A DNA stretch of 35,352 nt from positions 1 through 35,352 of IMG/VR virus record IMGVR_UViG_3300046006_004057; one strand, 5' to 3'. The notes under the pieces were generated by a model. That model was not told the DNA's origin. It ran no database searches and worked only from the letters and a program-made list of their open reading frames with translations. A program made the position numbers and the translations under genes. Positions 1 to 35,352 of this stretch are shown piece by piece. Within the stretch, counting starts at the first letter, position 1. Each line of letters begins with the position of its first letter. Source of the stretch: a virus.

Positions 1-35
1 ATGCAAATAACCTGCAAAAAATAAAGGGCTTTTTA
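1..35. other. Left edge, possible attachment-side leader
   Basis: Short AT-rich stretch before the integrase. It holds the ribosome binding site AAAGGG about 8 bases before the integrase ATG. The integrase is the outermost phage gene, so the left attachment core should be here or just outside. No tRNA end and no repeat that could be matched to a right-hand att site is visible, because the right end of the element is outside the window. Confidence 0.3.
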
Positions 36-2517: not shown

Positions 2518-2988
2518 TTAGTCCTGGTATAAACTCTTACCAGCTGGAAATTTTTTTTTATATTGAAGCATCTCAGCTTTTAAAGATAAGTCTGCAATCC
2601 TTATAATTTTATCGGCTAAGTCACACACCACATTTGCTTTTTTAATCTCTGCACTCATATCTGTGCCATCATCTGGGTCAGCTATCTTTTCCAACTGTTC
2701 AAAGAGGAAGTCGTTTAACTTTTTAAAGCTATCATTTTTCTTTTCTTTTATTTCTTCAACTTCTTGTATGTTGCCTTGAGATGATAGTTTCTTTTCAGTA
2801 AAGAGACTCTGCAACTCTGTTGGTAAATCTGATAATTTAACTATATTTGTAATATATGTTTGTTCTTTGTGTCGGATGTAACCATTTTTATCTATAACAA
2901 CACCTTTTGCAAGTATGCTTACCTTAGAAGGAATTACCTCAAAGGTACCATTTACTGCTGCTGCTTTTTCAAAAAGTTCATAACTCAT
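2518..2988 (-). CDS. Hypothetical phage protein
   Basis: A 156-residue protein, unrecognised. The first 60 residues look beta-rich. A charged linker follows (EVEEIKEKKND), then a helical C-terminal half containing an acidic patch (DPDDGTDM) and a long amphipathic helix. The start is directly downstream of the parB stop codon, with a GGAGATT ribosome binding site lying inside the end of parB, so translation is probably linked to ParB. The gap to the HNH gene is only 2 bases. Function unknown; the context is the partition and recombination part of the early operon. Confidence 0.7.
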   Translation of the reverse strand: MSYELFEKAAAVNGTFEVIPSKVSILAKGVVIDKNGYIRHKEQTYITNIVKLSDLPTELQSLFTEKKLSSQGNIQEVEEIKEKKNDSFKKLNDFLFEQLEKIADPDDGTDMSAEIKKANVVCDLADKIIRIADLSLKAEMLQYKKKFPAGKSLYQD

Positions 2989-4083
2989 TTAAATCTCCTC
3001 AATAGTTATCTTGTATGTTTTACCTATTTTAAAAGTACGCTTACCACCTCTTGCATAATTGACAAAATAAAAGAAACCTTCATCATCAAAACTTATACTC
3101 TTATCATTTTCAGCTTTTTTACTAGTAAATACAAACTTTTGTTTTTCTTCCTCTATCTCTATTTGCGTAAGAAAAAAGCTATATTCTTCTTCAACATATC
3201 CTTCTTTAAGGTAACTTGGATATTTCAAATGTGCTTTTAGTAAAGCATTACCTTTATTATATGCTTCAACAATATCACTCTGGTAGAGTATTCCATCTTT
3301 ACAACATATTTCAAGTTCATATTTTTTTAAATTTTCCCGTGGGAAATTTTCATTGAAACTTTTTGCTTGTCCAACTAAATCATTTTCAGCATCTTCAAAA
3401 ATTTTAAAGTGGTCAATCTTAGTTTTTTTAGGCTTGAAATCTTTAATCTCATCCCTGATAATTTCACCAGCTGAATATTTTTCATAAACCTCTTTTTGAG
3501 TACCTTTATCTTTTACTCTTGCAATTTCATCCATAACAGATATTGGAATATCTTTTTTATTTTCTTCTATATGATCTATGATTTCACTATCAAGTTTGAA
3601 ACAACTAAAAGCTTTACTTACAAAGCTATCTGATTTACCAATTCTGTTTGCTAAATCTGATTTTTTTGCATATCTTCCTGATTCCCAAAGTCTTAAAATA
3701 TATTTTGCTACTTCAAAATCTGTTAAATCACTTCTTTGAATATTCTCAATTAGTGTTAGTTCTTCTACTTGTTCATCACTTGATGTAAGTATCAAAGCCA
3801 TGATAGTTTTAGCACCATTATGTAAATGAGCTTTATATCTTCTCTCACCACTTACAATCATATAACCATCATCTTTTTTAACAACTGTTATTGGTTGAAG
3901 TAAACCATGCTCTTTGATGTTTGCTGCAAGTTCTTCAATATCATCAAATTGTTTTCTTGGTTGATTTGGGTTTGGGTAAACTTTTGTAATTACAAGTTCA
4001 TTAAAAGCTGTAATTCCTGAAGTTTTTACTTTTCCAGCTGTAACATTTGCTAGGTTTGATAGGGTGTTTGTTTTTGGACTCAT
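2989..4083 (-). CDS. parB: ParB-family partition protein
   Basis: Centromere-binding partition protein, 364 residues. The ParB/Srx-type N-terminal domain shows NPNQPRKQFDD, the CTP-binding GERRYKAH box, and ENIQRSDLTDFEVA. An HTH follows around KSDLANRIGKSDSFVSKAF. ParB proteins load on parS sites and stimulate the partner ATPase. The gene is in the same operon as parA, separated by two small genes, and its ATG overlaps the previous stop (ATGA). One copy of the dispersed palindrome lies inside the gene at 3333-3346 and encodes NFPREN (about residues 245-250). Whether it segregates an extrachromosomal form or only regulates is not visible. Confidence 0.92.
   Translation of the reverse strand: MSPKTNTLSNLANVTAGKVKTSGITAFNELVITKVYPNPNQPRKQFDDIEELAANIKEHGLLQPITVVKKDDGYMIVSGERRYKAHLHNGAKTIMALILTSSDEQVEELTLIENIQRSDLTDFEVAKYILRLWESGRYAKKSDLANRIGKSDSFVSKAFSCFKLDSEIIDHIEENKKDIPISVMDEIARVKDKGTQKEVYEKYSAGEIIRDEIKDFKPKKTKIDHFKIFEDAENDLVGQAKSFNENFPRENLKKYELEICCKDGILYQSDIVEAYNKGNALLKAHLKYPSYLKEGYVEEEYSFFLTQIEIEEEKQKFVFTSKKAENDKSISFDDEGFFYFVNYARGGKRTFKIGKTYKITIEEI
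3333..3346. repeat. Dispersed palindrome, copy 1 (in parB)
   Basis: TTTCCCGTGGGAAA, with AT-rich flanks extending the symmetry. On the coding (minus) strand it reads NFPREN in frame. It is one of seven copies in this window (see also 8023, 8767, 15385, 17473, 19915, 28135). Confidence 0.85.
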
Positions 4084-33210: not shown

Positions 33211-34533
33211 ATGCCAATTGACATAACAAACAAAAACGAAAAAAAGATAAATTTAACAGGTGCTCAAATAGCATCTGCTTTGATAAATAGTCATGAAAAT
33301 TTAGTAGTTTTAAATGATTTATATAATATTGGTGTGCCAGGAACAATTGGCTTTGGAGTAGGAGCGATTCCCTCTTCTCAAATCCCAACAGGTATGTATC
33401 CAATGGAAGGACACTATGACAAAGCTCATTCAAATTATGGAAATGTGATTACTTCAACTGGTTCTATTATGGTTGCAATTCCTAAGTTTTATTACAAAAT
33501 TATGCCGCCTAGTGTAAATGTATTTCTAATTTCTAACATTCAGTATGATGGATATGTACTAGACAGAATGTTCATTAACGCAAATACCGAACTGGACTAT
33601 GTCTTAGTAGATAAATTTACTTGTGGAAATGTAAATGGAATATTTACAAGTAAAGCAGGGATTGACCCATGCTCTACTGCTACGCTACATAATCCAATTG
33701 GAAATTTAGCAAATACTCCTACTAATACAAATGGTGGATTATATAAAGCTGTTAAAACAAGAGGTGAAAATTACTTTTTAACTTCGATATTTATTTATAG
33801 TGCTTTAGCAAGATTAGCAAAAGCACACGCAGATGCTGGAACTATTGCAACTTGTGCATTTAAAGATGTTGCACCATATTTACCTAAGGGATGTAACAAT
33901 AATGCCCTTAAAGATTCAAATGATGCTTCTGTTGTTTATGAAGCTAGTGGATATAGCAACTGTGGAAAAACAGGAGCTATAACTAACTTTGCAAAAACAA
34001 CGCACAATGGTCAAGCTTGTGGAGTTGCTGATTTAAATGGAAATATGTATGAAGTTGCAAGTGGATTTATAAGAACTACAGCTTTAGGATTTTTAATATT
34101 AAAAGAATCTGTAAATATTGCAGCTATCCAAACAGACTCGGTGACTCTTGGAGCTGGCGGAGCATACGACACAAATCTCTATGATGTAATAGACCTGAGT
34201 GATTTAATATCTAATACAGAAGTAGGAACTTGGGTTAAATTTGGAAATGCAGCAGAACAAGTTTTTGGATTTAGTACAGATAGAAATAGTGCAGCATATA
34301 AAAGAACATCTCTTAATATGCCATTAGTAAATGGAGTAAGCGTAAATGGTACAACGGAATTCGGTACAGATGGTTTATATAAATTTTTAAGAGATGGCTT
34401 GGCTTGCTTGGTCGGGTTTAGTTGGGGTAATGGGTCGAATGCGGGTGTGTTCGCTTCGAGTTTGAGCAATGCTCGGTCGTTCTCTTACGATTATGCGAGT
34501 GGTCGTGCCTCTTACAATGTGAAGATGTCATAG
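33211..34533 (+). CDS. DGR-diversified receptor-binding protein (C-type-lectin-like)
   Basis: A 440-residue target protein of the retroelement. The C-terminal half looks like the C-type-lectin/formylglycine-generating-enzyme fold used by DGR target proteins such as Mtd: ACGVADLNGNMYE in the middle and, at the end, ACLVGFSWGNGSNAGVFASS then LSNARSFSYDY, which resembles the Mtd end. The variable repeat covers about residues 396-434. It has a strong AGGAAGGGG site. It probably forms the tip that contacts the host receptor. The N-terminal 90 residues probably attach it to the tail. It is directly followed by avd. Confidence 0.88.
   Translation: MPIDITNKNEKKINLTGAQIASALINSHENLVVLNDLYNIGVPGTIGFGVGAIPSSQIPTGMYPMEGHYDKAHSNYGNVITSTGSIMVAIPKFYYKIMPPSVNVFLISNIQYDGYVLDRMFINANTELDYVLVDKFTCGNVNGIFTSKAGIDPCSTATLHNPIGNLANTPTNTNGGLYKAVKTRGENYFLTSIFIYSALARLAKAHADAGTIATCAFKDVAPYLPKGCNNNALKDSNDASVVYEASGYSNCGKTGAITNFAKTTHNGQACGVADLNGNMYEVASGFIRTTALGFLILKESVNIAAIQTDSVTLGAGGAYDTNLYDVIDLSDLISNTEVGTWVKFGNAAEQVFGFSTDRNSAAYKRTSLNMPLVNGVSVNGTTEFGTDGLYKFLRDGLACLVGFSWGNGSNAGVFASSLSNARSFSYDYASGRASYNVKMS
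34397..34510 (+). repeat. DGR variable repeat (VR)
   Basis: 114 bases near the 3' end of the target gene, matching the template repeat at 34985-35098 (offset 588). There are 17 differences. Ten fall at A in the template (10 of 22 A changed, against 7 of 92 other bases). Amino acid changes concentrate at template Asn/Thr/Asp codons (N to S, F, Y; T to S, A; D to A). Confidence 0.93.
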
Positions 34534-34558
34534 TGAACGATAGTGAGCGGTATATCTA

Positions 34559-34954
34559 ATGGCAACAAATAGTGAAGCAGTTTTAAATCATAGATATTTT
34601 GAAATGATTAAATTATTGAATATATATCTAAATCATTTTCCAAGATATGAAAAGTTTGCATTAGCAAATAATATAAGAATCACTGCATATGAAATATATG
34701 ATTTAATAACTGAGTGTCAAAAGAGGTACTTTAAAAAGACCTCTTTAACACAACTAGATGTTACCCATGAGAAATTAAGAATGCAAATATATCTAGCAAA
34801 TGAACTTGGATACTTTTCTTTCAAAGATGGCAAAAAAGATAAAGAAATAGAATCCATGCATAGGTATTTAGCTATTTCAAAACTTGTTGATGAAATAGGA
34901 AAAATAATAGGTGCATGGATGAAAAAACTAAAAGAAGATGGAAATTTTAAATGA
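34559..34954 (+). CDS. avd: Avd, accessory variability determinant
   Basis: A 131-residue four-helix-bundle protein of the DGR Avd type. The family pattern NHFPRYEKFALANNIR, ITAYEIYDLITECQKRYFKK, LRMQIYLANELGYF and RYLAISKLVDEIGKIIGAWM is clear. Avd forms a pentamer that binds the reverse transcriptase and template RNA and is required for cDNA synthesis. It sits between target gene and template repeat, the usual place. Its stop overlaps an ATG (34951) that opens the reading frame of the reverse transcriptase. Confidence 0.92.
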   Translation: MATNSEAVLNHRYFEMIKLLNIYLNHFPRYEKFALANNIRITAYEIYDLITECQKRYFKKTSLTQLDVTHEKLRMQIYLANELGYFSFKDGKKDKEIESMHRYLAISKLVDEIGKIIGAWMKKLKEDGNFK

Positions 34955-35352
34955 ATAATCTAGGGCAACATAACAATATGTTTAGCTTGGCTTGCTTGGT
35001 CGGGCTTAATTGGAGTAATGGGTCGAATGCTGGTGTGTTCGCTTCGAATTTGAGTAATGCTCGGACTAACTCTAACGACAATACGGGTGGTCGCGACTTT
35101 AGTTCTAAACCTGAAACTACAAAGGTAGAGACTGGAACTATAGGGATATGTTGCCCTGCTAATAGCGAAATAGAAAATAAATTTAGTCTTTTGAGTAACA
35201 CAATTGAAAAACAGACTAAAACAAAAAGAATAGGATATTTATTTGAAAAAGCATTTACTTTGGAAAATCTTTATGAATCTTTCTTGATTGCTAGAAAAGG
35301 CAAAAGAAAAAAAATAGCTATTTTAAGATTTGAAAATTCTCCTTTTTCTTCT
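34951..35352 (+). CDS. DGR reverse transcriptase, N-terminal part (cut by window end)
   Basis: An open frame from ATG 34951 (ATGA overlap with avd) to the end of the window, 134 codons, still open. The last part, RIGYLFEKAFTLENLYESFL then IARKGKRKK and AILRFE, is a typical start of a DGR reverse transcriptase (LFEK..LENLY..AR.GKR). No ATG lies in frame between the template repeat and that motif. Thus either translation begins at 34951 or 34978, with the template repeat as coding sequence, or at a rare codon such as TTG 35191. The catalytic YxDD core is outside the window. Confidence 0.8.
   Translation, partial: MNNLGQHNNMFSLACLVGLNWSNGSNAGVFASNLSNARTNSNDNTGGRDFSSKPETTKVETGTIGICCPANSEIENKFSLLSNTIEKQTKTKRIGYLFEKAFTLENLYESFLIARKGKRKKIAILRFENSPFSS
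34985..35098 (+). repeat. DGR template repeat (TR)
   Basis: The 114-base template, A-containing at the codons to be varied (AAT, AAC, ACT, ACG, GAC). It is in the same reading frame as the VR and also in frame with the reverse transcriptase ORF. Homology ends at about 35098/34510. At the 3' end, GGTGGTCGCGACT versus AGTGGTCGTGCCT carries non-A changes, in the zone where the IMH/IMH* sequences of other DGRs lie. Confidence 0.93.

What the first reader, a model, noticed from the sequence alone, without database searches (positions are those of the whole stretch)
33211..35352. Diversity-generating retroelement in a Campylobacterota-type temperate phage
Target gene, VR, Avd, TR and the start of a reverse transcriptase are in order. 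The VR/TR alignment (114 bases, offset 588) has 10 of 22 template A positions changed and only 7 of 92 other positions. Changes fall in Asn/Thr/Asp codons, giving S, F, Y and A. The target ends in a C-type-lectin-like domain. So a phage of this AT-rich lineage probably varies its receptor-binding tip by mutagenic homing. DGRs are known from BPP-1 and many phages; this particular one may be new.
Basis: partly seen in the sequence, partly recalled or inferred. Interest (0 to 1): 0.88.

Follow-up and report, generated by a model that had tools for sequence, protein, structure and literature searches.

The report
Phage hypervariation cassette with translated template
A prophage of a Campylobacterota bacterium carries a genuine diversity-generating retroelement that rewrites the tip of a tail protein, and in its lineage the RNA template appears to be read by ribosomes as the front end of the reverse transcriptase gene itself, which suggests how that enzyme could be made without a start signal of its own.

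Summary
The DGR is real and correctly placed: target 33211-34533, VR 34397-34510, avd 34559-34954, TR 34985-35098, RT from 34951 off the window end. Sister contigs hold the full RT with the DGR motifs SQ and YVDD. Two phage-B contigs with no differences in 1300 nt of target gene differ at 9 VR positions, 7 of them at template A. The predicted target resembles the DGR protein TaqVP. The host is a Campylobacterota bacterium. Two things are added. First, the window's TR did not write its VR (7/92 non-A changes; 146 of 149 related pairs have 3 or fewer). The VR fits another TR allele (1/92), and the window's TR fits a sister phage's VR (1/92). The record switches between two phages inside 34886-35028, most likely a mis-assembly. 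Second, TR and the structured spacer RNA (Rfam RT-14-like, strong covariation) form an open frame fused to the RT in this Campylobacterota RT clade, starting at a start codon at the avd stop. In relatives from other proteobacteria the same frame instead ends at the RT start (ATGA). So the template is probably translated. TR/RT-ORF overlap was catalogued before (DiGReF group 3); I found no report of this conserved coupling.

The parts
33211..34533 (+). DGR target gene (440 aa), C-type-lectin-like variable protein at the end of the tail/lysis module
   Evidence: AlphaFold2 model pLDDT 85, Foldseek best hits TaqVP 5vf4 E 7.5e-16, then Mtd 1yu0-1yu4
34397..34510 (+). VR (variable repeat), 3' end of the target gene; written from TR allele alpha (carried by L002-L005), not from the TR in this record
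34559..34954 (+). avd (131 aa, four-helix-bundle accessory protein); its TGA stop (34952-34954) overlaps the RT-frame ATG at 34951
34951..35352 (+). Reverse-transcriptase ORF, cut by the window end (422 aa in L015). Residues 1-91 are encoded by TR and its flanks; the RT domain begins at K92 (35224)
34985..35098 (+). TR (template repeat), allele beta from base 35029 on; lies in frame inside the RT ORF
35097..35220 (+). Spacer RNA (probable RT/Avd-binding and cDNA-priming region), Rfam RT-14-like, overlapping the RT reading frame
   Evidence: RF02921 40.3 bits, E 8e-4, below its gathering score of 48.1; covariation in 16 relatives
34886..35028 (+). 143-base stretch identical in phages A and B, where the record switches from phage A to phage B sequence
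35337..35352 (+). Last 16 bases match no sister contig (they read RFENSPFSS instead of RFEKNLGTE); probably a contig-end error
2..19 (+). att core TGCAAATAACCTGCAAAA, left prophage end; also present at the right end in L012, L002 and L015
36..1172 (+). Tyrosine integrase (378 aa) of the temperate phage that carries the DGR
   Evidence: Phage_integrase 7.8e-20

Best explanation
This is a working-type diversity-generating retroelement of a Campylobacterota prophage. Avd and the RT copy the TR RNA into cDNA with errors at template adenines, and the cDNA replaces VR at the end of a C-type-lectin-like tail protein, varying the phage's probable receptor-binding tip. In this lineage the template is also coding sequence. 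A ribosome that finishes avd restarts at the overlapping ATG/GTG, reads through TR and the structured spacer RNA, and makes the RT with a roughly 91-residue, probably disordered N-terminal extension that is the unvaried version of the lectin tip. One transcript would thus serve as messenger for the RT, as mutagenesis template and as structured priming RNA. In the wider lineage the same TR frame ends at the RT start codon (ATGA), giving translational coupling instead of fusion. Shown by sequence: all parts, the A bias, the open frames, the start-codon positions and the RNA covariation. Inferred: that the DGR is active, that ribosomes do translate TR, and receptor binding. Separately, the window's TR and VR come from two co-occurring phages (A and B) joined at an identical 143-base stretch, most likely by the assembler.
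For: DGR. A-specific variation between two phage-B contigs: 9 VR differences, 7 at template A, 0 in the 1300 nt upstream. Mismatched pair: VR_A against TR-alpha 9/22 A and 1/92 non-A; L001 VR against window TR 10/22 and 1/92; own pairs 7/92 each; norm 0-3 in 146 of 149. Translated template: VR frame open across the TR-RT spacer in 45 of 68 non-redundant relatives against 11.8 expected, with 50 stops in that frame against 112 and 202 in the others. A start codon in the TR frame within -4..+6 of the avd stop in 17/20 fused loci (control frames 1 and 1) and 20/28 coupled loci (controls 0 and 13), with ribosome-site energies better than background (p 6e-5 and 4e-11). Inside the extension the other possible starts have ribosome-site energies near background on average and none is present in all loci. 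Relatives with their own RT start mostly do have such a site. 10 spacer-length changes on the tree, all multiples of 3. RT tree: fused state in a supported Campylobacterota clade; a 7-row subclade that has an ATG with a strong ribosome site mostly has stops in the TR frame. Spacer RNA covariation 13 double-changed pairs against 7.0 +/- 1.5. Extension modelled as disordered.
Against: Spacer codon-position pattern is weak (0.20/0.28/0.34, dN/dS about 0.65), so the extension's amino acids are hardly constrained. Sampling columns of the RNA alignment alone leaves the frame open about 73% of the time per locus, so RNA conservation explains part of the openness. An in-frame TTG at -33 (35191 in the window) exists in many members and could be a weak RT start; L107, L035 and L017 have a ribosome site in front of it. 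The shuffle and start-codon counts are over related sequences and so are not independent trials. BPP-1 and phage Bise are not coupled this way. No expression, proteomic or read data were available. The stem-loop usual downstream of VR was not found.
Confidence: 0.78

Rival explanations
1. Ordinary DGR. The RT starts at a non-AUG codon (TTG at -33, window 35191) or an ATG inside the spacer; the long ORF through TR is a by-product of TR needing to be open in the VR frame plus a conserved, stop-poor spacer RNA.
For: TTG at -10 to -48 in 12 of 18 fused loci and an ATG at -75 to -120 in 10; RNA-profile sampling leaves the frame open about 73% of the time; weak codon bias in the spacer.
Against: Neither start is present in all members, and phages A and B already differ at the ATG (35123). 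Their ribosome sites are near background on average, whereas most non-fused relatives have clear ones. All 10 spacer-length changes keep frame. The avd-stop/ATG junction is kept in the RT frame in 17/20.
Confidence: 0.2
2. The switch between phage A and phage B inside TR is a real recombination event (exchange of TR/RT modules between co-resident prophages) rather than an assembly join.
For: Two records (window and L001) show opposite A/B joins around the same identical stretch; A and B can share an att site and host flank.
Against: The shared 143-base stretch is longer than usual assembly k-mers (k-mer sizes from general knowledge). The window breaks off 324 bases after the switch with an unmatched tail. 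In four metagenomes phage A carries TR-alpha. No other viral contig holds the TR-beta 3' end.
Confidence: 0.2
3. A decayed or inactive DGR, with the RT truncated at the window end (RFENSPFSS).
For: The last 16 bases of the window do not continue the RT seen in sister contigs.
Against: Sister contigs that are identical up to 35028 have an intact RT, and phage B shows recent A-specific VR changes. The odd stretch is only the contig end.
Confidence: 0.04

Closest known systems
Bordetella phage BPP-1 DGR (mtd-avd-TR-brt)
   Same: Same gene order (target/VR, avd, TR, RT); RT core alignable to brt (8ub7, 9e-54, RT residues 92-376 to chain 3-285); spacer RNA between TR and RT (Rfam RF03022 in BPP-1); predicted lectin-like target
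   Different: In BPP-1 TR is outside the RT ORF, and the TR-frame ORF ends 29 nt before the brt start. Here TR is in frame inside the RT ORF and the spacer resembles a different Rfam family (RT-14).
DiGReF structural group 3 DGRs (Schillinger et al. 2012, PMC3521204)
   [quoted passage not shown] Here frame conservation, start-codon placement, covariation and a tree argue that the overlap is a maintained state in one clade.
Rfam RT-14 RNA (RF02921)
   Same: The spacer matches the full model, 40.3 bits
   Different: Below the gathering score of 48.1; here it overlaps the RT coding frame and lies directly 3' of a TR.
TaqVP, Thermus aquaticus DGR variable protein (5vf4)
   Same: Best fold match of the target over most of its length
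   Different: 17% identity; TMq about 0.54.

Membership tests
Diversity-generating retroelement (DGR) | DGR-type RT (SQ in motif 4, Y-x-DD, no maturase domain) | tested here: met
   GIPIGNLLSQ (or GVPIGNLLSQ) and YVDD in all four first-aligned relatives including phage A; Pfam RVT_1 2.4e-18 is the only Pfam domain; best structure match is the BPP-1 DGR RT. The RT core itself is beyond the window and was read from sister contigs.
Diversity-generating retroelement (DGR) | TR/VR pair with substitutions confined to template adenines | tested here: met
   Matched pairs: 9/22 A and 1/92 non-A (phage A), 10/22 and 1/92 (phage B); the pair as found in the window: 10/22 and 7/92.
Diversity-generating retroelement (DGR) | Accessory protein Avd | tested here: met
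   bAvd 3.6e-17; PHROG Avd 5.8e-21; NCBIfam DivGenRetAVD 69 bits (cut-off 80).
Diversity-generating retroelement (DGR) | VR at the C-terminus of a C-type-lectin-fold target | tested here: met
   VR ends within the last 8 codons of the target; model pLDDT 85 matches TaqVP and Mtd. No Pfam domain above threshold.
Diversity-generating retroelement (DGR) | Structured RNA 3' of TR | tested here: met
   RT-14-like and covarying; its role in priming is inferred from BPP-1.
Diversity-generating retroelement (DGR) | IMH element and stem-loop downstream of VR | tested here: inconclusive
   No strong hairpin after VR; IMH not tested separately. The 2026 BPP-1 study reports the stem-loop as important but not strictly required.
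Diversity-generating retroelement (DGR) | A-specific variation in nature or experiment | tested here: met
   L001 vs L014: 9 VR differences, 7 at template A, none in 1300 nt upstream. Two contigs only; no read data.
TR-RT translational fusion (proposed state) | TR and RT in one uninterrupted frame with a start codon upstream of TR, maintained over divergence | tested here: met
TR-RT translational fusion (proposed state) | A protein that includes the TR-encoded segment exists | not testable with these tools
   Needs proteomics, ribosome profiling or a tagged construct.

The most novel reading that the evidence does not exclude
In this DGR lineage the mutagenesis template is a translated gene: TR plus its structured spacer RNA is kept as an open frame that is either fused to the RT or ends in its start codon, so that one RNA is messenger, template and primer scaffold at once, and RT production depends on ribosomes crossing the template.
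Probability: 0.65. Interest if true: 0.72.

Novelty: new variant of a known kind. Interest (0 to 1): 0.6.

Why it matters
The published view is that the placement of TR relative to RT does not matter and that the RNAs are most likely made separately (PMC3521204), and the reconstituted BPP-1 system needed an added ribosome site before brt (PMC12875486). If TR is translated in a whole lineage, RT expression and template use are tied on one RNA. That suggests a way for the RT to be made from the native operon, predicts that stop codons in TR would silence the RT, and gives a natural case of overlapping protein-coding and structured-RNA constraint. The mismatched TR/VR pair is also a practical warning: non-A differences between TR and VR are a sensitive flag for chimeric phage contigs or swapped cassettes.

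Tried and rejected
Other VRs in the window: none besides the one at 34397. Nucleotide relatives among 50,697 phage records: none by megablast. BPP-1 and phage Bise as coupled examples: rejected, their TR-frame ORFs do not reach the RT start. Protein-level selection on the spacer: weak, so the claim is restricted to frame, not amino-acid sequence. RNA conservation as the full cause of the open frame: tested by column sampling; it explains much but not the frame-keeping indels or the start codons. Translation starts inside the spacer as a general solution: rejected because none is present in all members and their ribosome sites are near background on average. tRNA attachment site: none found by ARAGORN. 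A single-sequence fold of the spacer is not significant (z -0.6); only the alignment shows the structure. A true phage-B contig with TR-beta: not found in IMG/VR.

Full report
Observation. The window is a 35,352-base IMG/VR virus record. The direct repeat is as stated: 114 nt, 34397-34510 and 34985-35098, with 10/22 template-A changes and 7/92 others (Fisher p 8e-5), and only 1 of 13 VR A positions changed in the reverse direction. The gene between is avd. The ORF from 34951 runs off the end and starts an RT.

The missing RT. Five IMG/VR contigs carry the same locus. L002-L005 are the same phage ('A'): every base compared from their start to window 35028 is identical. L002-L004 continue into a complete 422-aa RT with GIPIGNLLSQ and YVDD. 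Its best solved relative is the BPP-1 DGR RT (8ub7, 9e-54), confirmed by fold.

The pair in the record is not a true pair. From 35029 the window differs from L002-L005 at 11-15 sites, 9 of them in TR. The VR of phage A fits the TR of L002-L005 ('alpha') with 9/22 A and only 1/92 non-A changes, but fits the window's own TR ('beta') with 7/92. L001 is a related phage B (93% and 83% identical to the window in two blocks). Its VR fits TR-beta with 1/92 but its own TR (alpha) with 7/92. L014, another phage-B contig, also fits TR-beta with 1/92. Among 149 related TR/VR pairs, 146 have 0-3 non-A changes. So window and L001 are opposite joins of A and B around a 143-base stretch (34886-35028) in which A and B are identical. 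I read this as mis-assembly; real recombination is not excluded. The last 16 bases of the window match nothing and are probably a contig-end error.

Population evidence. L001 and L014 have no difference in the 1300 nt before VR but 9 in VR, 7 of them at the 22 template-A positions (p 1e-4).

Target and host. The target model (pLDDT 85) matches the DGR protein TaqVP (5vf4, E 7.5e-16) and then Mtd. The phage has a tyrosine integrase, terminase, tail protein J and holin. The att core TGCAAATAACCTGCAAAA is at window 2-19 and at the right end of sister contigs. Beyond it, L012 carries host desulfoferrodoxin and thiL. Campylobacterota genomes have thiL up to 83% identical, and six of the eight best loci hold desulfoferrodoxin (90-98% identical) beside it. 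The genus was not determined.

The template inside the RT frame. In phages A and B the RT ORF begins at 34951, overlaps the avd stop, runs through TR and the spacer, and reaches the RT domain at residue 92 (35224). I fetched DGR relatives from genomes and viral contigs and located TR, VR and RT in each. In all relatives down to about 69% RT identity, TR is in frame in the RT ORF; the same clade also includes L114, L117 and L019 at 60-66%. Among 68 non-redundant lineage members the VR frame is open across the spacer in 45, against 11.8 expected from dinucleotide shuffles, with 50, 112 and 202 stops in the three frames. Where the ORF is not fused, it most often ends four bases into the RT start (ATGA or TTGA). 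Because the RT second codon starts with A, that stop is automatic; the informative part is the open frame before it. These loci share ancestry, so the counts are not independent trials.

Start codons. In 17 of 20 fused loci an ATG/GTG in the RT frame lies within -4..+6 of the avd stop (ATGA, TAATG, TGATG, TAGTG, TAAATG); the two other frames score 1 and 1. In 20 of 28 coupled loci a start lies there in the TR frame (controls 0 and 13). Ribosome-site energies are better than background (p 6e-5, 4e-11). Possible starts inside the spacer (ATG at -75 to -120, TTG at -10 to -48) are near background on average and patchy. Phages A and B differ at the ATG (35123 A/T). Non-fused relatives mostly have ribosome sites at their RT start (mean about -6 kcal/mol).

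Tree. The fused state occupies a Campylobacterota clade (SH-aLRT 95, 23 rows, 16 fused; hosts are named only for the genome loci). A nested 7-row subclade has an ATG at -39 to -51 with a strong ribosome site, and 5 of its 7 members have stops in the TR frame. Separate fusions occur in L124/L131, L027 and L038. Spacer length changed 10 times among fused members, always by multiples of three.

The spacer is also structured RNA. It matches Rfam RT-14 over its full length (40.3 bits, below gathering 48.1). Sixteen spacers give 97.4% paired cells and 13 pairs with double changes against 7.0 +/- 1.5 in shuffles, and 2-6 when slid. In BPP-1 the equivalent spacer is Rfam Phage_DGR. RNA constraint explains the low synonymous rate and part of the openness (73% per locus under column sampling). 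The extension itself is modelled as disordered (pLDDT about 25), so its amino acids probably matter little and its frame matters more.

Known work. [quoted passage not shown] The reconstituted BPP-1 system lacked a clear ribosome site before brt, and adding one raised activity 100-fold (PMC12875486). I found no report of translation or coupling through TR in the papers searched. The library holds only open-licence papers, so the claim of novelty is limited.

Verdict. The DGR is an ordinary, genuine member of its kind. Its lineage shows a variant with a probably translated template. The TR/VR mismatch is most likely an artefact of two co-occurring phages.

Noticed in passing
L015:3025-3297 and L002:5127-5399: Two att-core copies 255 bases apart with a fragment of desulfoferrodoxin between them, identical in two independent assemblies; a tandem prophage remnant or an imprecisely excised circle.
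   Followed up: partly
window 35097-35220; L106:2961-3086: Rfam RT-14 RNA (RF02921) is matched by the DGR spacer, so that RNA family is probably a DGR template-RNA spacer.
   Followed up: partly
window 34951-35352: PHROG 1423 (reverse transcriptase) aligns to the TR-encoded residues, so some members' annotated RT starts lie upstream of TR; family profiles of DGR RTs contain template-encoded sequence.
   Followed up: no
window 34529-34548: Imperfect tandem repeat ATAGTGAACG/ATAGTGAGCG just after VR, also in L001, where a stem-loop would be expected; no strong hairpin there.
   Followed up: partly
L123, L133, L064: Three other relatives with 6-12 non-A TR/VR differences; possible further swapped or chimeric cassettes.
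   Followed up: no
L015:1995-2531 and 2519-3004: Two ORFs (178 and 161 aa) between RT and the right att site, without a Pfam match in their L012 copies.
   Followed up: no
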